From Desulfocurvibacter africanus subsp. africanus DSM 2603 (GTDB lineage Bacteria > Desulfobacterota > Desulfovibrionia > Desulfovibrionales > Desulfovibrionaceae), in contig NZ_KE383873.1 of assembly GCF_000422545.1 (NCBI RefSeq), positions 289,905-353,904 of the forward strand: 64,000 nucleotides of DNA, read 5' to 3'. This document shows positions 7,353 to 43,788 of this stretch, one piece after another (position 1 is the stretch's first letter; each line of letters opens with the position of its first letter). The position numbers and the translations under genes are program-made. The notes below the pieces were generated by a model. It saw only the letters and a list, made by a program, of their open reading frames with translations. It did no database searches and was not told the origin of the DNA.

Positions 7353-7951
7353 GCTTCGGGAACCCCTCCAGAGCCTCGCGGAGCGCGCGGGCGGCAGCTT
7401 CGGCCCCAATGGAACCGATCATCGGCGGATGGCCGTAAGTTGAGGGCATCATGTGTCAATCTCCAATGATGTAGTGCTTAGTTACAGTTAAAGCATCATA
7501 GCAATAAACGTGTCTTGCATGAAGATGCAGAAAAAATGCATGACGCATCAGCATGCCTTGATGGAAAAATCAAGGCACAGTTGGTTTCTCTAGACGGGTC
7601 GAATATGTATACAGTACGCAGAAATTCTTGTCAAACACATGACAGGATTTATTTGATATTGTTCAGTATGCTCAGATGTGAATCGCGATTTAAAATAATT
7701 TTGGTGACATGAAGGCGGGTGGACAGGGTAGTTGCTCGTTCTGGAATGCGGAAAGCCGAACGGGGGTGGGCTCTCTCCGACAGGCGTTTCAGTCGGTTCA
7801 ACCGGCAGTAGGTGCTCAGGAGGGAAGGGCCAGAGATGACGACAATGTTGGGCTCGCCCACGGGGCGACGGGGGCCTGGATGACGGTCGGGATATAGTAA
7901 GCCGGCGGACGACGACGTGGAATTGCCCGGCGGGCCCGCCGGGCGCGGATT
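7353..7951. other. Intergenic region upstream of proV with several inverted repeats
   Basis: No protein gene is supported here; the short open frames lack ribosome-binding sites. The AT-rich part (about 7440-7710) should hold the proV promoter. I see a hairpin TGCCTTGAT-GGAAAA-ATCAAGGCA near 7553-7576, an operator-like TGTCA-N6-TGACA near 7632-7647, and a perfect 20-bp GC palindrome GCCCGGCGGGCCCGCCGGGC at 7925-7944. None can be tied to a named regulator. Confidence 0.5.
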
Positions 7952-8077
7952 AGAGCATTTTGCTTTTGAAAATGCTCTGCAAGCCATGCGTCGGCATGGC
8001 TTGCCGCCGCGTAGGCGTAGGCGCAATTCACTTGCGCCGTCAACGCCGGAGCGGGCGTCTTAAAAGCAATCTGCTTT
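7952..8077 (-). repeat. 126-bp hairpin repeat, copy 1 (MITE-like)
   Basis: Copy in minus orientation. It has imperfect terminal inverted repeats (GAGCAGATTGCTTTTAAG against GAGCATTTTGCTTTTGAA), TA on both flanks, and three internal hairpins. Its 5' end overlaps the TAA stop codon of the lpxR-like gene. Confidence 0.85.
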
Positions 8078-9131
8078 AGAATTTAACAGAGAGGGTCAGG
8101 GAGCCGTATTCGTGGAGCCCTGTCTCGCCGTCGAACTCCGGGGTGCGGAATATGTGGGTGTAAGCCAGGCGGTAATCCCGCCAAGTCACGGCCGCTCCGG
8201 TGATGAAGTCGGCGACGAAGTATTTCTTGTCCACGCTGCGGCTGTCCCGGAACAAGGAGCCGTCCAGAAACATATTGCGGCTCACGGCGCGGCCCATGGC
8301 TCCGCCGAACAGGTAAAAGCCGAAATACGGACTGGATAGGAAATAGCCTGATCCTGGAGGGCTGGGCTGGATGCGCGGCGGGCCATAGTCCAGCATCAGG
8401 TTCTGGCCCAGGCGCAGCATGGCTCCGGTCTCGACATGGTCGTAGACCGTGCCCAGGGCCAGGCCGAACTGTGGCGTCAAATCCGCGCCGAATCCTTGGT
8501 CGCCGATCGCGGCCAGGGCGCGCCAACTGCGCAGGTAGGTCAGCTGGAGGGTTGGTTCGTTGGGCAGCTGCGTGTCCCAGCCTTGAGGTTCGTCGGAGTA
8601 GGTTATGTATTCGTGCACGAACTTCTGCGTCTTGCCGGCCAGGGAAGCCGGCCCGACCATGCCGACCTGCAGTTCCAGCTGATGCAGGCGCTTGCCGTTC
8701 TCCGCGATCAAGCCGACGGAGCCATACAACCAGCCGGCATAGGGCCGATCGTCTTCAGGCGGCGTGGTGAGCGTGATATCCGACGGCGTGTACATGTTCT
8801 GACCAAGGGCGAACTCCACGCGCGCGTTCCCTTCCTCGGGAAAAAGAAGGGACTTGGCGGCCGCCTCGCGCAGGAACTCAGGCACGTCATTCAGGCCCGA
8901 CAGCCAGGAAATACGCACGCCGTTGGTATAATGCTGGTCCGTGTTGTAGAAGACGTCGTTTTCATAGATGAGGCTCAAGGTGCCTTTATCGTCTTCGTCC
9001 TGGGCATAAGCTACGCTGGGGAAGCTGAGCAGGACAAACGCGAAAAGCCACAAGCCGTGGCAGAGATTCAGCGTTGCGCGCGCAGGCCTGGGGAGGGTAG
9101 CCATGTATGGTCTACGCATCGTGTTCAGCAT
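8076..9131 (-). CDS. lpxR: LpxR-like lipid A 3'-O-deacylase (DUF2219), outer-membrane beta-barrel
   Basis: LpxR enzymes remove the 3'-acyloxyacyl chain of lipid A at the outer-membrane surface. The 351-residue protein has a signal peptide at about residues 25-43 (cut after AYA), then the family hallmark YENDVFYNTDQHYTNG, with the Asn-Asp pair and TNG that form the active site and calcium region in Salmonella LpxR, and RPYAGWLYGS further on. It ends SLTLSVKF, an outer-membrane C-terminal signature with terminal phenylalanine. The start could be any of three early Met codons. The gene is bracketed by two inverted repeat copies, suggesting it moved or is insulated as a unit. Confidence 0.85.
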   Translation of the reverse strand: MLNTMRRPYMATLPRPARATLNLCHGLWLFAFVLLSFPSVAYAQDEDDKGTLSLIYENDVFYNTDQHYTNGVRISWLSGLNDVPEFLREAAAKSLLFPEEGNARVEFALGQNMYTPSDITLTTPPEDDRPYAGWLYGSVGLIAENGKRLHQLELQVGMVGPASLAGKTQKFVHEYITYSDEPQGWDTQLPNEPTLQLTYLRSWRALAAIGDQGFGADLTPQFGLALGTVYDHVETGAMLRLGQNLMLDYGPPRIQPSPPGSGYFLSSPYFGFYLFGGAMGRAVSRNMFLDGSLFRDSRSVDKKYFVADFITGAAVTWRDYRLAYTHIFRTPEFDGETGLHEYGSLTLSVKF

Positions 9132-9715
9132 GGTTGGCGATGTATATGGGACTAGAACTGGTCGCCTCTTATGACTGAGGCATACTCAGTAATCTGGACG
9201 CCGTGCGAGTCCCGGTTGACGGGGTCTTGTCCTTGAGCTTGCGCAGAAGCTGCGCAATATGTGCGAGTATGACCTCATTATGGCTGCAGAGGAATATGCA
9301 AAATTGAATTACTAGTCAAATTTTAAATTTGATTTTTAATTTAGAACGGATTGCTTTTAAGACGCCCGCTCCGGCGTTGACGGCGCAAGTGAATTGCGCC
9401 TACGCCGAAGCTAGCGGCAAGCCAAGCCGACGCATGGCTTGCAGAGCATTTTCAAAAGCAAAATGCTCTAATGGCATGACTGGAGCAGTCAGGGGAATAC
9501 CGAAGCGGCACCTCAACCATTTGTTGAGATGATAACGGCGTCCAGGCGGTGAAAAGGCTGTTGCAACCTGGGAGAGAGTCCACATTGCGAGCGGCCACTG
9601 GATGTAGGGTGGCTCCCGGAAGCATCCGAGTGGCGTCGCTGTTCAAGACAACGGGTCTGTACGCAAGGCATGGCGCGGGGTTAACGGATGCGACGCCGAC
9701 CCGCGCGGTAAACCG
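9132..9715. other. Intergenic region between lpxR and the kinase gene, containing repeat copy 2
   Basis: Apart from the hairpin repeat at 9343-9469, no gene is supported. Small hairpins are visible: ACTGAG-N5-CTCAGT near 9173, TTGCGCA-N5-TGCGCAA near 9238, CTCAAC-N5-GTTGAG near 9512, and longer competing inverted repeats around 9670-9720 next to the kinase stop codon that may terminate it. A minus-strand frame near 9170-9290 (with LLRKLKDKTPSTGTRT) has no start and may be a gene remnant. Confidence 0.4.
9343..9469 (+). repeat. Hairpin repeat, copy 2 (MITE-like)
   Basis: Plus orientation, opposite to copy 1, about 210 bp upstream of the lpxR start. TA flanks both ends. The most diverged copy: GAACGGATTGC at the left end and a changed spacer (GCCGAAGCTAGCGG) between the first two hairpins; one arm of hairpin 2 has a mismatch. 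Confidence 0.85.
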
Positions 9716-11842
9716 TTATGCGCGAGCCGTGCTGTCCGAGGTTAGCGCCCGGTGAATGGACTCGGCGAGTTGGCGTTTGAGAATGGGCTTCATGACGATT
9801 TCCCTGATGCCCATCTCGCGAACCTTGCTGTAGGAGACGATCTCCGAAAAGCCCGTGCATAGAATGACAGGCACATCGGGGCGCGTCTGCAGCGCCTTCT
9901 CGGCCAGTTCCATGCCTGTCAGGTTGGGCATGTTCTGATCCGTGAGGATGAGGTCGAACTTGTCAGGCTGAAAGCGGAAGGCCTCCAGGGCTTCCACGGA
10001 ACTCGTGCGGGCCACCACCTCGTAGCCCAGGCCTTCCAGGATTTCTCGGCCGATGTCCACCAGGGCTTTCTCGTCATCCACGAAGAGAATGCGCCCCTTG
10101 CCAATGGGCAGCATCCTGGACTCCTCATCGGTAACGGTATCATCCATAAGCCCGGTTTGAGGCAGGAGCACCTGGAAGGACGCGCCCTTGCCCTCTTCGC
10201 TTTGCACGTAGACCACGCCGTTGTGTTGCTTGACGATGCCGTGCACCACGGCCAGCCCCATGCCCGTGCCTTCGCCCGGTTTCTTGGTGGTAAAGAATGG
10301 GTCGAAGATCTTTTCCTGGATCGTCTTTGGGATGCCATGGCCTGAATCCGTGACGGTGATGACCACGTAGGCACCGGCGGACAGGCCAGGCGTCTTGGAG
10401 ACGGTGGCCTCGTCAAGATGCACCTCGGCCAGGCTGATCTCCAGCAGGCCGCCGCGCTCGCGCATGGCATGGGCCGCATTGGTGCACAGGTTGAGCAGGA
10501 TCTGGTGGATCTGAGAAGGATCGGCCATGACCGTGTCGTTGCCGGTCATGATGTTCTCGCGGATATCCAGGCTCGCCGGCAGCGAGGTGCGCAGGAGCTT
10601 GACCGTCTCCTTGATGAGCGGTGAGACGCGCAGGGCTTTCTTTTCCTGGGTACCCTGGCGGCTGAAGTTGAGGATCTGGTTTATGAGATCCTTGGCCCGA
10701 CGGCATGCGCCCAGGATTTCCTTGAGTCTGCGCTCCAGGGACGAGCCCTTGTCCGTATTCTCCAGGATTATCTCGGTATAGCCGGTGATGACGCCCAGAA
10801 TGTTGTTGAAGTCGTGAGCTATGCCGCCGGCCAGCGTGCCGATGGCCTCCATCTTCTGGGCGATGCGCAACTGCTCCTCTAGGCGCTTGCGCTCGGTCAC
10901 GTCCAGCAGATAGCCGCGGATCTCCACGATCTGGCCGCGCACATTCAAGATGCCAATGATGGTGCCGATGACATGCACCGTGCGCAGATCGCGCCGTCGA
11001 AACACACCTTCGAAGTTTTCCAGTTTTTTGCGCGTGAGAATCAGATCGCGCAGGGAGTCGTCCGAGCCGGTCAACTGCAAGTCGAAAATGTTGACGCTCA
11101 TGGCGTCCGGCACCGTTCCGAAGCCGAAGATGCGTGCAAAAGCTTTGTTGCAGGCCTTGAGAACGCCGTCCGGCGCGGCCACGAAGTCGCCGGTGATGTC
11201 CTCCTCGAAGAGCAGTCGGTAGCGTTCTTCGCTCTCCAGCAGCTCCTGAAGCATGCGCATGCGCACGGCCATGTCGCGCTTGAGGCGCTTGTTGGCCTCG
11301 CTGAGCGCATTGGTGCGCATGTCCACCTGCTTCTGCAGCGTGGCGTTGAGCATGATCAGGTCACGGGCCGTCTTCCACTTGGCGCACAGGGACTTGGCGA
11401 GCTGACGCAGCTCCTCGGGGTGCAGCGGTTTCTGGATGTACAGCAGCTTCTCGGGCGGGGTCACCCTGCGGTTCAGCTCTCGCGTATTCACATCGGAATA
11501 TGCGCTGACGATGACGATCTCAATGTTGGGGTCCAGGGCGCGGATGTTTTCCGCGGTCCAGACCCCGTCGGGGCCGGGAGGCATGCGCACGTCGAGCAAG
11601 GCCACGCTGTAGGGGCGGCCTTCGGCCATGGCCCCGCGCACGGCATCCACGGCCTGATCGCCCTGATTGCACATGGTCAACTCGAAATCCGGCAGCAGGG
11701 GTTCCTCATCTAGGTCGCCGCCGAGGTCCTCGGCCGGCGAGAGGATTTCCTTGTATAAGCCGAGGATGCTCTCCTCGTCGTCCACGACGAGCAGGCGATA
11801 GCGGCTCATGGGAGTCTCGTTGACAGGAATTTGTTCGTTCAT
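9716..11842 (-). CDS. Hybrid sensor histidine kinase: REC-PAS-HisKA-HATPase-REC
   Basis: Soluble phosphorelay protein of 708 residues with receiver domains at both ends. The first receiver (about 5-145) keeps LLVVDDEES and the phosphoacceptor in [12 protein letters not shown] domain follows (about 265-380), then the H-box [15 protein letters not shown]-box [13 protein letters not shown]-boxes [11 protein letters not shown], and a C-terminal receiver with ILFVDDE and LILTDQNMP. The N-terminal receiver suggests it takes phosphate from another kinase, plausibly the membrane kinase encoded 16 bp upstream. I chose ATG at 11842 just after that gene's stop; the longer frame is its shadow. No transmembrane segment is seen. 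Confidence 0.85.
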
Positions 11843-17567: not shown

Positions 17568-20300
17568 CTAATCCGCGGCTCCTTTATCCGATCCAAGTCG
17601 CTCAAGAACCCGATCCAGCTCCTTCAGGTCAAGAGGCTTGGACAGGTAATCGTCCATGCCGGCGGACATGAATTTCTCCCGGTCTCCCTTGAGGGCATAG
17701 GCGGTCAGAGCGACGATGGGTATGCGCGGGTCAGTGTCCGGAACCTTACCTGCTCGGATGCGCCGGGTCGCCTCCACACCGTTGACCTCCGGCATCTGCA
17801 CATCCATGAGCACGAGATCGAAACGCTCTTTAGCCAGCATATTCAAGGCATCCCTGCCGTTCTCCACGGCCGTGACCACGTGCCCGCGCTCCTTGAGCAG
17901 TTCCAGGGCCAGGAAGCGGTTGATTTCATTGTCCTCGGCGAGCAAAATCCGTAGCGTCCGGGCGTCCGGCAGAACCGCCGCCTGTACGGACTCTTGGGTG
18001 GTCGCCGTATTGCTTGCCGGTTCGAGCGCGGCCGAGAAGGTGAAAGTGCTTCCTTGGCCGGGCTCGCTTCTGACAATGATCCTGCCACCCATGAGTTCCA
18101 CGAGCCGATTGGTAATGGTCAGTCCCAGGCCAGTGCCGTCGTGTTTGGCCCCGCGGGCGCCCGTGTCGAAGGGGTCGAAAATCTTTTCTAGCTTATTCTT
18201 GGGGATGCCGATGCCCGTGTCCTTGACAGAGGCCAGTAGGCATATGTGCTCGGGCTTGTCGCTATCCCCCGCGACCGGCGAATCATGGGCGTTCTCCAGA
18301 CCCACGTGCACGGAGACCTGTCCCGTCTCGGTGTATTTGACCGCGTTGCCGATGAGGTTGACGAATATCTGCCGCAGCCGGCCCTCGTCGCCCTTGATCC
18401 AGTCAGGAACGCCCGGATCAATGGCTGCGGTGAAAGACAGTCTCTTGCGCTCGGCCGTGAGGCGCATGGTTTCGAACAGGCTGTCGAGCATGTCGCGCAG
18501 GTCGAAGTCGGCATGCTCCAGCTCCACGCGACCCGCCTCGATCTTGGACAGGTCGAGAATGTCGTTGATGATGTCGAGCAGCGAGTTGGCGGATTGCTTG
18601 ACCAGACCCAGATAGTCGCGGACCTTGCCCTTGGGTTCCTGCATGAGCGCAAGCTCGGTCAGGCCTATGACTCCGTTCATGGGCGTGCGTATCTCGTGGG
18701 ACATGCTGGCCAGAAACTCGGATTTGGCACGGTTGGCGGCTTCGGCTTCAGCCTTGGCCTGGAACAGATCCTCCTCCAGGCGCTTGCGCTCGGTGATGTC
18801 GTGGACGATGGAGTGGAGAAGCAGTCTGCCCTCGACGCGCACGGGACCACTGTAGACTTCCACATCCCTAACCTCACCCGAAGCCAGCCTGTGCCTGAAC
18901 TCGAACTTGTTTTGCTCCTTGGACGCAGCCTCCATCATCCTGGCGCGAAACTCCTCAATGGGCAGGGTATTGATCTGGCCGATGGTCATGCGCCGGCACT
19001 CTTCTGGCGAGTAGCCGTAGTAGGCGCATGCGGCTGGATTGACGTCCACGAGTTCCCCTGTTTGGGGATCAGCTAGCAGCATGACTGCGTGGCTGTTATG
19101 GAAGATGGAGCGGTAGCGCTCCTCGCTCTCGCGCAAAGCCTCTTCGGTCCGCTTGCGCTCGGTGATGTTGATCAGTGTTTGGATCGCTCCGAGGGTTCTG
19201 CCATCGCTTGTCCTGACAGGAGCCGCGCTGGAGAGGATATTGGACGAAAGAGAGGAGCCTTGTGGGTAGATGATGAACTCCTCGCCGTGGACAGTTGCGC
19301 CATGGAGCGCCCTCCAGCCCACCAGCTCCTCTTTGGTGGGGATGCTCCCGTCTAATTTGCGAACTGTGAAAAGCTTGACCCGCGCATCCGCTGGCAAATC
19401 GCTTACATTCTCCAGGGAGAAGCCTAGGATCTTCTCAGCCGAAGGGTTCAGGTACGTGATTTGATGTTCCGTGTTATAGAAAATGATGCCCTCAGCCAGT
19501 GACATAAGCGCTGCATCCAGCTCGGCCGCCCGCTTCTCGGACTCATCTCGGGCCTCTTGGGCCCGGCGGTTGGCTTCCGAAAGGTCAGCCAACCGCTCCC
19601 GCAGGGCAACCCTCATGTCCTCGAAACTTGCCGCAAGCTTTGCGACCTCATCGTTTCCCGACACCCGGATCGGATGATCGAGGCGGCCGATACTCAAAGC
19701 CTTCGTGGCCGCTTCCAGGCTCACGACGGGGGAGACGACCCTGCGTTGCAGAGTGTACAGCAGCGACACGACGACCCCCGCCAGGAATGCGACCGCGCTT
19801 GCCGTCCAAACCAGCATCCATCGCCTTTCGCGGTACATATACTTATCCGTCAGGTCATTGATGGCGAGCACGTCGGCTACCATGGATGCGGTTCTGACAA
19901 CCAGTTGCCCCTGGATCATCTGCCTGACATCCATCTCAACGTCGGCTTGACCGGTCACCGCCAGATTCTTGAACAGGGCGCCTATCGAGGCATGTTCCTG
20001 AAGAATTCGGATTTTCAGGATTCGTGACTGTTCATCAAGCGTCGGCAGGGCCTTGAGTACCGATGCCAGATCCGCATAATGGGTTTGCCACTGCAAGGCT
20101 GCGCGTAGATTCTGGAAACCTGAGGGCTCTTGCACCAGACCGAGGAGTAAGGTGATCTTTCGCACCGCGCTATTCAGATGTTGCGATTCCGAAGCATGCC
20201 GATCTTCCATGGTCCTCAAGGCGAAGATGGTCGCTGATACCATCAAGACACTGGCAATACCGACAACTGCGGCTATCTGAAGGATTCTTCGAATGCTCAT
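17568..20300 (-). CDS. Membrane hybrid histidine kinase: HAMP-PAS-PAS-HisKA-HATPase-REC
   Basis: A 910-residue phosphorelay kinase. Two transmembrane helices (about 8-28 and 163-185) frame a helical periplasmic sensor, followed by HAMP (about 185-240), two PAS domains (about 255-385 and 390-515), the H-box FLASMSHEIRTPMNGVIGL, the ATP domain (NLIGNAVKYTETG, GTGLGLTI) and a C-terminal receiver with LLAEDNEIN and LVLMDVQMP. Its start is four bases after the stop of a solute-binding-protein gene, so it forms an operon with two binding proteins and probably senses their ligand. The receiver segment is nearly identical in DNA to that of the kinase at 22779-25151. Confidence 0.88.
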   Translation of the reverse strand: MSIRRILQIAAVVGIASVLMVSATIFALRTMEDRHASESQHLNSAVRKITLLLGLVQEPSGFQNLRAALQWQTHYADLASVLKALPTLDEQSRILKIRILQEHASIGALFKNLAVTGQADVEMDVRQMIQGQLVVRTASMVADVLAINDLTDKYMYRERRWMLVWTASAVAFLAGVVVSLLYTLQRRVVSPVVSLEAATKALSIGRLDHPIRVSGNDEVAKLAASFEDMRVALRERLADLSEANRRAQEARDESEKRAAELDAALMSLAEGIIFYNTEHQITYLNPSAEKILGFSLENVSDLPADARVKLFTVRKLDGSIPTKEELVGWRALHGATVHGEEFIIYPQGSSLSSNILSSAAPVRTSDGRTLGAIQTLINITERKRTEEALRESEERYRSIFHNSHAVMLLADPQTGELVDVNPAACAYYGYSPEECRRMTIGQINTLPIEEFRARMMEAASKEQNKFEFRHRLASGEVRDVEVYSGPVRVEGRLLLHSIVHDITERKRLEEDLFQAKAEAEAANRAKSEFLASMSHEIRTPMNGVIGLTELALMQEPKGKVRDYLGLVKQSANSLLDIINDILDLSKIEAGRVELEHADFDLRDMLDSLFETMRLTAERKRLSFTAAIDPGVPDWIKGDEGRLRQIFVNLIGNAVKYTETGQVSVHVGLENAHDSPVAGDSDKPEHICLLASVKDTGIGIPKNKLEKIFDPFDTGARGAKHDGTGLGLTITNRLVELMGGRIIVRSEPGQGSTFTFSAALEPASNTATTQESVQAAVLPDARTLRILLAEDNEINRFLALELLKERGHVVTAVENGRDALNMLAKERFDLVLMDVQMPEVNGVEATRRIRAGKVPDTDPRIPIVALTAYALKGDREKFMSAGMDDYLSKPLDLKELDRVLERLGSDKGAAD

Positions 20301-22778: not shown

Positions 22779-25151
22779 TTATTCTACGCTTTTTCCAGCC
22801 GACCCGATCCGCTCCAGCACCCGGTCCAGCTCTTCCATATCGATGGGCTTGGACAGGTAATCGTCCATGCCGGCGGACATGAATTTCTCCCGGTCTCCCT
22901 TGAGGGCATAGGCGGTCAGAGCGACGATGGGTATGCGCGGGTCAGTGCCCGGAACCTTGCCTGCTCGGATGCGCCGGGTCGCCTCCACACCGTTGACCTC
23001 CGGCATCTGCACGTCCATGAGCACGAGGTCGAAACGCTCTTTAGCCAGCATATCCAAGGCATCCCTGCCGTTCTCCACGGCCGTGACCACGTGCCCGCGC
23101 TCCTTAAGCAGCTCCAAAGCCAGGAAGCGGTTGATCTCGTTGTCTTCTGCAAGCAGGATCTTGAGCGGCCGGAGTTCCGGCTCGGCAGCGGGTTGTGCGG
23201 CCATCTCGGGCTTCTCTTCCGGTATTGCAAGTTCGAGCATGACCGAGAAGCTGAACGTGCTGCCCTTGCCGGGTCGGCTTTTGACTGTGATCCGGCCGCC
23301 CATGAGATCGATGAGCCCCTTGGTGATGGTCAGTCCAAGCCCCGTACCGCCATGCCTGGTACTTCGCGTCCCGGTGTCGAAGGGCTCGAAGATCGACTCC
23401 AGCCTGTTCGCCGGGATGCCGATGCCTGTGTCGCGGATGGAAGCAATGATCTCCACTGGTCCAGGCTTGGCCAAATCCAAATGATCTTCTGCAGTTACCT
23501 GCACGGAAACGCTCCCGGCCTCGGTGAACTTGAGGGCATTGCTGATGAGATTGACGAAGATCTGTCGTAGACGCCCCTCGTCGCCAAAAAGACTTGCAGG
23601 GACGCGTGGGTCGATCTTGGTCGAGAAGGTGATCCCCTTGCGCTCGGCCTCGATACGCATGGTTTCAAAGAGTCCTTCGAGCATTTCGCGCGGGCTGAAA
23701 AAGCTTTTCTCCAGCTCGATGCGCCCCGCCTCGATTTTGGACAGATCGAGAATATCATTGATGATGCCAAGTAGCGAGTCCGCTGACTGCTTGACCATGC
23801 CGAGGTAGTCGCGGACCTTGGGCTTGGGCCTCTGCATGAGCGCAAGCTCGGTCAGACCGATGATGCCGTTCATGGGTGTCCTGATCTCGTGGGACATGCT
23901 GGCCAGAAATTCGCTCTTGACCCGGTTGGCCCGCTCGGCCTCCCGCTTGGCCTGCGCTAGGTCGGTGATATCGCGGCTCACCGCGAGCACGGTTTTCATT
24001 TCGCCATCCCGCCCGACCTCGGGGACGAACCTGATATCGATGAGCTTGATTCCCTGCGGCCCCTCCCAGGCTATTTCGCAGGACTGCTCCTGGCCGGTCG
24101 CCAAGGCCTCACGGACTGCCCCTGCGACTCTCTGTTGCATCTCCAGAGATAAGCCTAATATTCCAAGTTTATTGCCGACGATGGCCTGGGCCGGGAGCCT
24201 TGTCATCCTCGCGAAGCACGGGTTGACGTAGAGGTAGCGCAGGTCCTTGTCATAACGGACAATCCCATCCGGCGAGTTCTCGACCAGGGCGCGGTAGTGC
24301 TCTTCCCGGATGTGCAGGTCGGCCTCGGTCTCCTTGAGCGCCGTCATGTCCCGGCTGATGGACATGACCTGCCTGACCTCACCGTCAGGGGAGCGCAGGG
24401 GCGCCATGCGCAACTGGTGGAACTTCCTCTTGCCCGCCGTAGTGAGATAGGTGAAATCGACCGTTACCAGCTCGCCCGTCTCGAAGATCCGCCGGACCCC
24501 TTCCTCGAACGAATCGACCATTTCCTGGGTGTAGACCGCACTCTCCGCCTGCAGCTTCCGCAAGGTCTTGCCGACGAGATCATCCCGAGAGAGCCCGGTT
24601 TCCATTTCGATAGCCGGGCTTACGTAGACGCGGCGCAGGTCCCGGTCATAGACCGAGATGACGTCGGGTGAGTTCTCGGCCAGGGTGCGGAAGAGATCTT
24701 CGCGGAGGTGTAGCTCGGCCTCGTCCTGCTTCCGCCGCGTAATGTCCTCGACCACGGCCAGAAGGAAGAGGGGTTCGCCGTGCTCGTTCCTGGTCAGGGT
24801 GGCTGTGAGCATGGCCCAGATGATCCGTCCATCCTTGCGATGGTAGCGCTTTTCCATGCTGAAGCGGTCGATTTCCCCACGCATGAGCTGGTCAATGCGT
24901 GCCAGATTCTTCCTCAGATCCTCGGCATGGGTGATCTCCCGCAATGTGCGCTGCGTCAGTTCGTCCGGCGAGTAGCCGAGGATCTCGCACAGGCGCCGGT
25001 TGACGCGCAGGAAACGTCCCTCAAGGTCCAGGTGCGCCATGCCCATGGGGGCCTGCTCGAAGGTGGAGCGCTCGGCCTCCCGGCGCTCGTACTCCGCAAG
25101 CTTTGCCCGCAGATCCTCGATGATGTGGTCTTTATGCTCCTGTTCGGCCAT
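22779..25151 (-). CDS. Cytosolic hybrid histidine kinase: three PAS domains-HisKA-HATPase-REC
   Basis: A 790-residue kinase without membrane helices. A short coiled coil (1-30) leads into three PAS/PAC units at about 30-145, 150-270 and 275-395, joined by repeats of REEHYRALVENSPDGI type. The H-box FLASMSHEIRTPMNGIIGL, N-box NLISNALKFTEAG, GTGLGLTI and a receiver with LLAEDNEIN and LVLMDVQMP follow. Its receiver is almost the same as that of the membrane kinase at 17568-20300, at both protein and DNA level, while the sensor parts are unrelated. It is probably monocistronic. The PAS ligands are unknown. Confidence 0.87.
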   Translation of the reverse strand: MAEQEHKDHIIEDLRAKLAEYERREAERSTFEQAPMGMAHLDLEGRFLRVNRRLCEILGYSPDELTQRTLREITHAEDLRKNLARIDQLMRGEIDRFSMEKRYHRKDGRIIWAMLTATLTRNEHGEPLFLLAVVEDITRRKQDEAELHLREDLFRTLAENSPDVISVYDRDLRRVYVSPAIEMETGLSRDDLVGKTLRKLQAESAVYTQEMVDSFEEGVRRIFETGELVTVDFTYLTTAGKRKFHQLRMAPLRSPDGEVRQVMSISRDMTALKETEADLHIREEHYRALVENSPDGIVRYDKDLRYLYVNPCFARMTRLPAQAIVGNKLGILGLSLEMQQRVAGAVREALATGQEQSCEIAWEGPQGIKLIDIRFVPEVGRDGEMKTVLAVSRDITDLAQAKREAERANRVKSEFLASMSHEIRTPMNGIIGLTELALMQRPKPKVRDYLGMVKQSADSLLGIINDILDLSKIEAGRIELEKSFFSPREMLEGLFETMRIEAERKGITFSTKIDPRVPASLFGDEGRLRQIFVNLISNALKFTEAGSVSVQVTAEDHLDLAKPGPVEIIASIRDTGIGIPANRLESIFEPFDTGTRSTRHGGTGLGLTITKGLIDLMGGRITVKSRPGKGSTFSFSVMLELAIPEEKPEMAAQPAAEPELRPLKILLAEDNEINRFLALELLKERGHVVTAVENGRDALDMLAKERFDLVLMDVQMPEVNGVEATRRIRAGKVPGTDPRIPIVALTAYALKGDREKFMSAGMDDYLSKPIDMEELDRVLERIGSAGKSVE

Positions 25152-38120: not shown

Positions 38121-38261
38121 ATGTACATCAACTTGCACAACATGCAGGCGATCATCGCACTCGCATGCGGCGTTCTCATTCTCATCATGCCCAAGCTGCT
38201 CAACTACATCGTGGCCCTGTATCTTATCATATTGGGCGTCATGGGCATCGTACGCTTTTAG
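38121..38261 (+). CDS. DUF3096 small membrane protein
   Basis: A 46-residue protein with two hydrophobic segments around a short PKLLNYI turn: AIIALACGVLILIMPKLLN and YIVALYLIILGVMGIVRF. This matches the DUF3096 pattern of tiny inner-membrane hairpins. AGGAGGCGGC precedes the ATG at 38121, which decides the start over an upstream in-frame ATG. The TAG stop is shared with the first bases of repeat copy 3, and a strong terminator follows the repeat. Function unknown. Confidence 0.75.
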   Translation: MYINLHNMQAIIALACGVLILIMPKLLNYIVALYLIILGVMGIVRF

Positions 38262-38385
38262 AGCAGATTGCTTTTAAGACGCCCGCTCCGGCGTTGACGG
38301 CGCAAGTGAATTGCGCCTACGCCTACGCGGCGGCAAGCCATGCCGACGCATGGCTTGCAGAGCATTTTCAAAAGCAAAATGCTCT
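38260..38385 (+). repeat. 126-bp hairpin repeat, copy 3 (MITE-like)
   Basis: Almost identical to copy 1. Hairpin 1 is GGCGCAA-GTGAA-TTGCGCC, hairpin 2 is GCAAGCCATGC-CGAC-GCATGGCTTGC, and hairpin 3 is AGAGCATTTT-N7-AAAATGCTCT at the right end. TA flanks both ends, and the left TA is part of the DUF3096 stop codon TAG. Confidence 0.9.
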
Positions 38386-38431
38386 AAGAACGTTTGCGCA
38401 TGGCCCAGCAGGTTTGTTCCTGCTTGGCGCT

Positions 38432-42200: not shown

Positions 42201-42242
42201 AAGCCCGTAGAGATTGTCGGCTGGGTTTTGTTACTGGCTCCT

Positions 42243-42368
42243 AGTGCGGATTGCTTTTAAGACGCCCGCTCCGGCGTTGACGGCGCAAGTGAATTGCGCC
42301 TACGCCTACGCGGCGGCGAGTCATGCCGAAGCATGGCTCGCAGAGCATTTTCAAAAGCAAAATGCTCT
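42243..42368 (+). repeat. Hairpin repeat, copy 4 (MITE-like)
   Basis: Same structure as the other copies. Hairpin 2 is GCGAGTCATGC-CGAA-GCATGGCTCGC: the third A-T pair of the other copies is replaced by G-C through changes in both arms. TA flanks both ends; the right TA belongs to the TAG stop codon of the leftward beta-barrel gene. Confidence 0.9.
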
Positions 42369-43788
42369 AAAAGAAGTACGTGATCCAGAACTCCGTGCGG
42401 GCGTCCTGCAGCTTTTCCCCGAACTCGCTCTTCTCAGGTCCAAAGGGCATGATGAGCCTGGTCCTCAGCTCAAGGTCGGACCGGATCAGGTAAGACACCT
42501 CAGGGTTGATGCTGAAGCTGTGGTCGCCCAGGTTGGCGATGACCGTCAGCGTGGGCGTCAAGTAAAGGATGTCGAACGGCTCCTTCTGCGAAACCCTGAA
42601 ATAGAGGTAATTCCGGCCCACGCTGCTCTGGTTAAAGTCCTGGCCGGCCAGAGTGCTCCGTTTCAGGAGCCGGTCGTTGCCCGTCTCCAGGTACTGCTGG
42701 TAGCCGTTCTCAATGAGCGTGAAGTAGTCGTCCATCTCGCCAGGCGAGTAGCCCTCGCCGTTGTGGTAATATTCAAGGATAAAGGTCGTGTCGTAGGCGT
42801 TCAGGTAGCGCAGGCCCAGCAGGAAGCTATAGGCATCGTAGCGCTCCGTGCGCAGGTTGCCCTGCTCGTCGGTGAGCGTCTTGTCGTAATCAAGGCGCAG
42901 GGCCGCCTCGCCGTGGATCTCTAGGTTACTGCTCAGATTTCTGGAGAAATCCAGGCCATAGCGCGTGTCGTAGTCCTCGCCGGTTGCAAAGAGCAGGTCG
43001 ATGTCGGTGTCCATGAGCAGGAAGTACAGCTTTCCGGCATAGACCAGGGAACCATCGTCGGCGAGGTCGGCATTGACGTCCTCGTCTACCGGGACGAGCA
43101 CCGGGGTGAAGGCCACGTTGGTCAATGGACCCTGGAAGCTCTTGATGTAGTCGGCGTAGGCCAGGACATAGCCCTGGCGGGCATAATCGGGATCATCGAC
43201 GTCCTTGGGCCGGCTGACGAAGGCCACGGGGTTCCAGGCATAGCCCTTGCCCCAGTTGAGGACCTTTTTGCCGGCTTCAAGCGTGAACGCGTGGGAGGGC
43301 CGCCAGGTGGCGAAGCCTTCCTCAAGGAGCACCTGGCTTGCCCAGTGCTCCTCGTCGCGCAGGAACTCCTCCGACGGCTCGTCCGGGGCCGTACCCCCGC
43401 GCTTAGCCTCGCTCCAGGCAATATCGAAGCGCGGGCGGGCGTACAGGCCGACCTCGGTCCATTTGTAGGAAACCTCGGGCTTCAGGCTGAGCAGGAAGTC
43501 CGCCAGCAGCGAGTCCTGCGGCTCATTATAAAAGCGCTGCTTGTAGAGCAAGGCGTCCGTGTCCAGGAAGCGCGCGATCGAACGCTGCTCGACCCGGCCC
43601 CAGAGATTGAAGGGGTTGGGAGTCTCGGCCTCGGGAATCTCGAAGTCCAGATCGTATTCGTCGCCTTCGGCATTCTGGGCACCTTGGGCCAGGGCTGTCG
43701 CAGGGCACAGCGCGTGCGCCAGGAACAGCAGGGCCGCCAGGGTCGCCATGAGCGGCTTGGCAATGGGCGTGAAGAAAGCGCTGCGCAT
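42367..43788 (-). CDS. Outer-membrane beta-barrel protein (DUF1302-like)
   Basis: The 473-residue protein has a signal peptide (hydrophobic about 13-33, cut after ALA), then long alternating beta-strand patterns (NLWGRVEQRSIARFLDTD, GKKVLNWGKGYAWNPV) and a C-terminal FWITYFF with final phenylalanine, which fits an outer-membrane barrel. GKKVLNWGKGYAWNP resembles DUF1302/DUF1329-partner barrels. It is the last of four co-directional genes with a MacB/LolD-type ATPase, an FtsX-type permease and a LolA-like protein. It may be the outer-membrane end of an export route. AAGGACGGAGCC precedes ATG 43788. Confidence 0.8.
   Translation of the reverse strand: MRSAFFTPIAKPLMATLAALLFLAHALCPATALAQGAQNAEGDEYDLDFEIPEAETPNPFNLWGRVEQRSIARFLDTDALLYKQRFYNEPQDSLLADFLLSLKPEVSYKWTEVGLYARPRFDIAWSEAKRGGTAPDEPSEEFLRDEEHWASQVLLEEGFATWRPSHAFTLEAGKKVLNWGKGYAWNPVAFVSRPKDVDDPDYARQGYVLAYADYIKSFQGPLTNVAFTPVLVPVDEDVNADLADDGSLVYAGKLYFLLMDTDIDLLFATGEDYDTRYGLDFSRNLSSNLEIHGEAALRLDYDKTLTDEQGNLRTERYDAYSFLLGLRYLNAYDTTFILEYYHNGEGYSPGEMDDYFTLIENGYQQYLETGNDRLLKRSTLAGQDFNQSSVGRNYLYFRVSQKEPFDILYLTPTLTVIANLGDHSFSINPEVSYLIRSDLELRTRLIMPFGPEKSEFGEKLQDARTEFWITYFF

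What the first reader, a model, noticed from the sequence alone, without database searches (positions are those of the whole stretch)
8070..8080. Three of four repeats supply the TA of a stop codon
Seen: copy 1 overlaps the TAA of lpxR, copy 3 the TAG of the DUF3096 gene, and copy 4 the TAG of the DUF1302-like gene; each stop follows a phenylalanine codon. Both element ends occur in this role. Inference: insertion at the TA of a stop codon keeps the protein intact and places three hairpins directly after it, so the element may act as a portable 3' end (terminator or mRNA stabiliser) kept by selection.
Basis: partly seen in the sequence, partly recalled or inferred. Interest (0 to 1): 0.65.

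Follow-up and report, generated by a model that had tools for sequence, protein, structure and literature searches.

The report
Small transposon landing on stop codons
A 128-base piece of mobile DNA, present in about 300 copies in this bacterium, inserts at the letters TA and so often lands on a gene's stop codon without harming the protein; its placement is largely explained by where it can land and where landing is harmless, so no special role is needed.

Summary
The repeat is a 128-bp MITE that inserts at TA and resembles IS630 transposons at its ends. About 302 copies lie in the 4.40-Mb genome. Of 234 full copies mapped, 63 (27%) end exactly on a gene's stop codon; in 59 of these the rejoined site restores an in-frame TAA/TAG, so the proteins are intact. 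A natural empty site in a relative's prophage shows the same event: TA duplicated, C-terminus unchanged. LpxR's Pfam profile runs to the last residue before the element.

A selected 3' end is not needed. Stops are hit far more often than all non-coding TAs predict (59 against 17.6), but about as often as matched TAs in the next 25-50 nt (ratio 1.0-1.4, not significant). They fit the Y-TA-R target and lie where insertion is tolerated: convergent gaps are over-used, divergent gaps under-used, operonic stops spared. Orientation is random, older copies are no more concentrated at stops, and 0 of 30 stop-overlapping copies hold an intrinsic terminator.

Verdict: a new family of a known kind. The phenylalanine remark follows from the pyrimidine preferred before TA.

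The parts
7951..8078 (-). MITE copy 1; left end on the lpxR stop codon
8076..8078 (-). TAA stop codon of lpxR, made of the element's terminal TA and third base
8076..9131 (-). lpxR; Pfam LpxR profile 2-323 of 323 matched up to residue 351 of 351, so the C-terminus is intact
9342..9470 (+). MITE copy 2 (sub-family with a different middle stretch); intergenic, not at a stop codon
38259..38386 (+). MITE copy 3; left end on the DUF3096 stop codon
38058..38261 (+). DUF3096 gene ending in the element's TAG
42242..42369 (+). MITE copy 4; right end on the stop codon of the gene to its right
42367..43788 (-). predicted gene (473 aa) ending WITYFF and then the element's TAG; the DUF1302 label is not confirmed

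Best explanation
The repeat is a non-autonomous, IS630 (Tc1/mariner) type miniature inverted-repeat transposable element of 128 bp. It inserts at Y-TA-R (best T-C/T-TA-A), duplicates the TA, and brings TAG or TAA into frame 1 at either end. In frame 1, Y-TA-R can only be a stop codon, so stop codons are the one in-frame part of a gene that fits the target and survives the insertion. Copies therefore pile up in 3' flanks, stop codons included, because insertions in genes, promoters and operons are lost. Shown: TA duplication, target context, intact proteins, 3'-flank bias, sparing of operonic stops, terminal similarity to IS630 elements. Inferred: mobilisation in trans by an IS630 transposase, and purifying selection as the cause of the bias.
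For: 302 places with at most 3 mismatches to the right end, 0 in the reversed control. Termini TAGAGCAGATTGCTTTT / TAGAGCATTTTGCTTTT. A natural empty site in G000 against prophage contig L138 shows TA duplicated and C-terminus VAGY unchanged. A copy nested in another fits TA duplication. 159 of 170 intergenic insertions have a pyrimidine before TA and 153 of 170 a purine after (its printed labels before TA are off by two). 59 of 63 stop cases rejoin to TAA/TAG. The stop rate against matched TAs within 25 or 50 nt is 1.00-1.39 (all p > 0.2; target-weighted fits). Convergent gaps 83 observed against 46.2 expected, divergent 25 against 58.8, operonic stops 6 of 57 against 16.0 (p = 0.0018). IS630 elements with related ends: 2 in this genome and 7 in relatives, 12-16 of 17 positions alike, against 7 of 3,050 TA-starting 17-mers of the window at 12 or more. 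No Y1 transposase.
Against: Unweighted for target context, stops are hit 1.8-2.3 times as often as TAs within 25-100 nt, so the conclusion leans on the target model. Against the next 100 nt in gaps of 60 nt or more a 1.47-1.52-fold excess remains in two weighted fits (p 0.049 and 0.036). The rate falls with distance even inside convergent gaps, where no promoter explains it. No transposase found here has exactly these ends.
Confidence: 0.85

Rival explanations
1. Portable 3' end: the element is retained after stop codons because its hairpins end transcription or protect the mRNA in both orientations.
For: Strong RNA fold on both strands (z -7.95 and -7.68). The excess in convergent gaps and the sparing of operonic stops would also follow from a polar, bidirectional terminator. 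The rate declines with distance from the stop.
Against: No stem plus T-run in 0 of 30 stop-overlapping copies, that is none has one, and none reported at the four window copies. Terminator-like motifs are no rarer after the element (4 of 30) than after control stops (8 of 132). Pairs between the two ends are often broken and never compensated. Divergence is equal at stops and elsewhere. One copy sits between two close tandem prophage genes.
Confidence: 0.12
2. Targeting: the transposition machinery is steered to gene ends (for example by converging transcription or by terminators), beyond the Y-TA-R sequence.
For: In convergent gaps of 60 nt or more the per-target rate falls from 6.6 at stops to 1.9 at 101-200 nt and 0.3 beyond 400 nt.
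Against: Long gaps may hide genes that the simple gene caller missed; loss of harmful insertions explains the same pattern.
Confidence: 0.12
3. Premature stops: the element lands in the middle of genes and truncates them, and the stop only looks natural.
For: 4 of 63 stop cases rejoin to a tyrosine codon; the one of these in the first set lost 2 codons.
Against: 59 of 63 rejoin to TAA/TAG; the LpxR and DUF3096 profiles reach the end; natural empty site. Random frames would put many stops inside the element; 1 of 234 is there.
Confidence: 0.03

Closest known systems
RUP of Streptococcus pneumoniae with IS630-Spn1 (passages of PMC2229807 and PMC3049150)
   Same: About 107 bp, around 100 copies, TA target, ends like those of an IS630 element, over-represented between convergent genes
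   Different: Different host; here the stop-codon overlap is quantified. No sequence comparison with RUP was made
BOX and SPRITE repeats of S. pneumoniae (passages of PMC3049150)
   Same: BOX encodes the stop codon at the extreme 3' end in 36 of 58 overlapping CDSs without clear truncation; [quoted passage not shown]
   Different: SPRITE has a stem and U-rich tract like a terminator; the present element has none
ERIC/RU-1 of enterobacteria and Correia/NEMIS of Neisseria (passages of PMC2229807 and PMC2759123)
   Same: Short palindromic MITEs, TA ends and TA duplication (enterobacterial repeats); effects on mRNA stability or RNase III cleavage are reported
   Different: Different hosts; no RNA data exist for the present element and no sequence comparison was made
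IS630-family insertion sequences of the same bacterial family (L131, L132 and relatives)
   Same: Ends TARAGCA..., purine after TA in 9 of 9, DDE_3 transposase
   Different: About 1 kb and encode a transposase; no perfect match of ends was found

Membership tests
MITE of the IS630/Tc1-mariner type | short, too small for a transposase | tested here: met
   128-bp consensus; length 123-134 in 129 copies
MITE of the IS630/Tc1-mariner type | terminal inverted repeats | tested here: met
   15 of 17 positions alike between the two ends (consensus)
MITE of the IS630/Tc1-mariner type | TA target duplication | tested here: met
   natural empty site; nested copy
MITE of the IS630/Tc1-mariner type | ends shared with an autonomous IS630 element | tested here: inconclusive
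   9 of 16 transposase loci have ends 12-16 of 17 alike; none identical
MITE of the IS630/Tc1-mariner type | moved in trans by that transposase | not testable with these tools
   needs a transposition assay
REP/RAYT repeats | Y1 (TnpA_REP) transposase in the genome | tested here: not met
   0 matches in G000; 5 of 14 control genomes have one
Intrinsic terminator | GC-rich stem followed by a T-run | tested here: not met
   0 of 30 copies with 9 nt downstream; none at the window copies
Known Rfam RNA family | match above gathering score | tested here: not met
   0 matches in the window
RUP, BOX, ERIC or Correia by descent | sequence homology | not tested
   no reference sequence was fetched; compared only through papers

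The most novel reading that the evidence does not exclude
Some or many copies have been co-opted as bidirectional 3' ends: the element seals convergent gene pairs and stop codons with a stable RNA fold, and selection keeps it there, giving the residual of up to about 1.5-fold at stops and the steep fall with distance from the stop.
Probability: 0.12. Interest if true: 0.55.

Novelty: new member of a known kind. Interest (0 to 1): 0.28.

Why it matters
It shows how a mobile element's target (Y-TA-R) and the genetic code combine: in frame, the target can only be a stop codon, so insertion there is nearly harmless. That gives a plain null model for claims that repeats at gene ends are functional, and a warning that a raw excess at stop codons (59 against 17.6) can largely vanish once target and neighbourhood are matched. 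If a residual is confirmed in unselected libraries or strain comparisons, it would point to co-option of repeats as 3' ends.

Tried and rejected
Intrinsic terminator scan of the copies: nothing at the element. Rfam: no match. REP/RAYT: no Y1 transposase. Phages and plasmids by distant blastn: no match with the element, nor with lpxR plus flank in plasmids. Covariation: changes on both sides occur at 4 pairs of the inner stems (19 cells, 11 of them at one pair), while pairs between the two ends are never compensated; not used as evidence for RNA function. Low variation of the right end is not used, because copies were largely recruited by an exact match to it. Age test for retention: no difference. 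In the first set of 129 copies the residual at stops in gaps of 60 nt or more looked larger (1.5-1.9 in target-weighted fits, p 0.015-0.18), so the set was enlarged to 234; it fell to 1.1-1.5.

Full report
What it is. The four copies in the window (7951-8078 -, 9342-9470 +, 38259-38386 +, 42242-42369 +) are one element with the 128-bp consensus. Its ends read TAGAGCAGATTGCTTTT (left) and, inward from the right, TAGAGCATTTTGCTTTT, alike at 15 of 17 positions. The genome (G000, 4,401,199 bases, 40 contigs) has 302 places within 3 mismatches of the 25-base right end and none for the reversed control; 244 are exact (47, 78, 72 and 47). Of the 58 relatives searched besides G000, 4 have any match (3, 1, 8 and 10).

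Family of the host. Record L137, whose match position corresponds to G003:C140, is titled uncultured Desulfovibrionaceae; G003 is of the same family as G000.

The observation. Copy 1 supplies the TAA of lpxR, copy 3 the TAG of the DUF3096 gene, copy 4 the TAG of the gene at 42367-43788. Pfam confirms LpxR over profile positions 2-323 of 323, up to residue 351 of 351, and DUF3096 over 1-36 of 37, up to residue 66 of 67. So both proteins end where their families end. The DUF1302 label for the third is not confirmed. That LpxR, and perhaps the third protein, are outer-membrane barrels, which usually end in phenylalanine, is recalled knowledge.

Genome-wide map. I wrote a small codon-usage gene caller and mapped a first set of 129 copies, then a fuller one: 257 matches in 170 fragments (970,826 bases), of which 15 partial and 8 near an edge were dropped, leaving 234. 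Of these 63 lie with a terminal TA exactly on a gene's stop codon (left end 25, right end 38), 170 are intergenic and 1 has a stop inside the element. Rejoining the flanks with one TA gives TAG 35, TAA 24, TAT 3, TAC 1, so 59 of 63 are true stop codons; the other 4 are counted as truncations.

Natural empty site. A prophage contig of IMG/VR (L138) holds three full copies. One, at 1369-1495, sits on the TAG of a phage gene. The same prophage region in G000 (C8; 97% identical over 1,371 bases) lacks it: GGCTATTAGGAGTCC against GGCTACTAGA...element...GCTTTAGGAGCC. The TA is duplicated, the protein ends in VAGY in both, and the next gene's GGAG and start codon follow directly. A second copy in the prophage also ends on a stop (gene 9478-9999). 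A copy nested in another (L001) gives a rejoined length equal to the consensus with one TA, with two base differences, and an IS630 element lies inside a copy in L131.

Target. In 170 intergenic insertions the base before TA is a pyrimidine in 159 and the base after is a purine in 153 (the script's printed labels before TA are shifted by two). In frame 1 Y-TA-R is by definition a stop codon. This also explains the phenylalanine remark: 9 of 63 occupied stops end in F; 18 of 460 unoccupied TAA/TAG stops do, but 18 of 189 of those preceded by a pyrimidine (p = 0.35).

Is the stop codon special? Against all non-coding TAs, weighted for target context, 59 of 229 are at stops against 17.6 expected (p = 9e-17). 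But the right comparison is with equally good targets nearby. In gaps of convergent or tandem genes the rate at stops relative to TAs 1-25 or 1-50 nt downstream is 1.00-1.39 in the target-weighted fits (p 0.21-1.0), and relative to 1-100 nt 1.14-1.52 (p 0.036-0.51). Without target weighting it is 1.8-2.3 (p 0.05 or less). In the first set the target-weighted fits gave 1.1-2.0. So most or all of the excess is target plus neighbourhood; a residual of up to about 1.5-fold is not excluded.

Neighbourhood. Of 221 copies with both neighbours known, 83 lie between convergent genes (46.2 expected), 113 between tandem genes (116.0) and 25 between divergent genes (58.8). Stops followed within 60 nt by a gene on the same strand hold 6 of 57 (16.0 expected, p = 0.0018; first set 1 of 28 against 8.4). 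Orientation in tandem gaps is 60 to 55. Divergence from consensus is the same at stops and elsewhere (median 4.0 and 4.0, p = 0.80), and the share at stops is 0.24, 0.25 and 0.26 from the least to the most diverged third. This is what insertion followed by loss of harmful copies predicts. It does not exclude polarity: a terminator would also be spared only outside operons.

Terminator or stabiliser. The transcript of either strand folds well (z -7.95 and -7.68). But 0 of 30 stop-overlapping copies contain a stem followed by a T-run, and terminator-like motifs are found after the element in 4 of 30 against 8 of 132 control stops (p = 0.24). No RNA data are at hand.

Mobiliser. G000 has no Y1 transposase but has IS630-type transposases (4 DDE_3 matches; the L131 frames match HTH_Tnp_IS630 and DDE_3). 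A blind search for inverted repeats starting with TA finds ends TAAAGCAACTTGCAATT / TAAAGCACTTTGCAATT (985 bp, L131) and TAAAGCAGCTTGCAAAT / TAGAGCAGTTCTCTATT (986 bp, L132) (in the second run the L132 pair tied for best). Of 16 transposase loci of this genome and relatives examined, 9 have such ends, 12-16 of 17 positions like the MITE; 7 gave none. Only 7 of 3,050 TA-starting 17-mers of the window reach 12. All 9 are followed by a purine. None is identical, so the actual mobiliser is not proven.

What is known. In Streptococcus pneumoniae, RUP (107 bp, TA target, ends like IS630-Spn1; passages of PMC2229807) is the nearest analogue. [quoted passage not shown] Both halves of the present finding thus have precedents. 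A 2024 review of prokaryotic MITEs (PMC10969869; passages) has no occurrence of 'stop codon'. Searches of the paper library for Desulfovibrio with MITE, intergenic repeat or IS630 (listing only) and for D. africanus repeats (passages of PMC3409199) showed no description of this family; most subscription papers are not held.

Limits. Copies were mostly recruited by an exact right end, so diverged copies are under-sampled; 234 of about 302 are mapped. The null TAs come from the same fragments. The gene caller is simple, though thresholds of 8 to 30 gave the same picture on the first set.

Noticed in passing
L131:421-987: The downstream reading frame of an IS630 transposase ends in a TAA made of the element's terminal TA and the first host base, so its stop codon is completed by the target; seen in 1 of 9 IS630 elements examined.
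   Followed up: partly
L131:1-1096: An IS630 element (985 bp) lies inside a MITE copy, at the TTTTAA of its left end.
   Followed up: partly
L001:1395-1640: One MITE copy is inserted in the right-end hairpin of another.
   Followed up: yes
9342-9470: Copy 2 belongs to a sub-family (24 of 129 copies) with a different stretch at consensus positions 66-71.
   Followed up: no
17588-18703 and 22799-23896: Two neighbouring long genes share stretches of 75-94% identical DNA, probably a duplication.
   Followed up: no
G000 contigs C1, C3, C11, C39, first bases: Several contigs begin within or just beside a copy of the element, so the repeat probably breaks the assembly.
   Followed up: no
L138: A prophage contig of IMG/VR carries three copies, so the element also rides in phage DNA.
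   Followed up: partly
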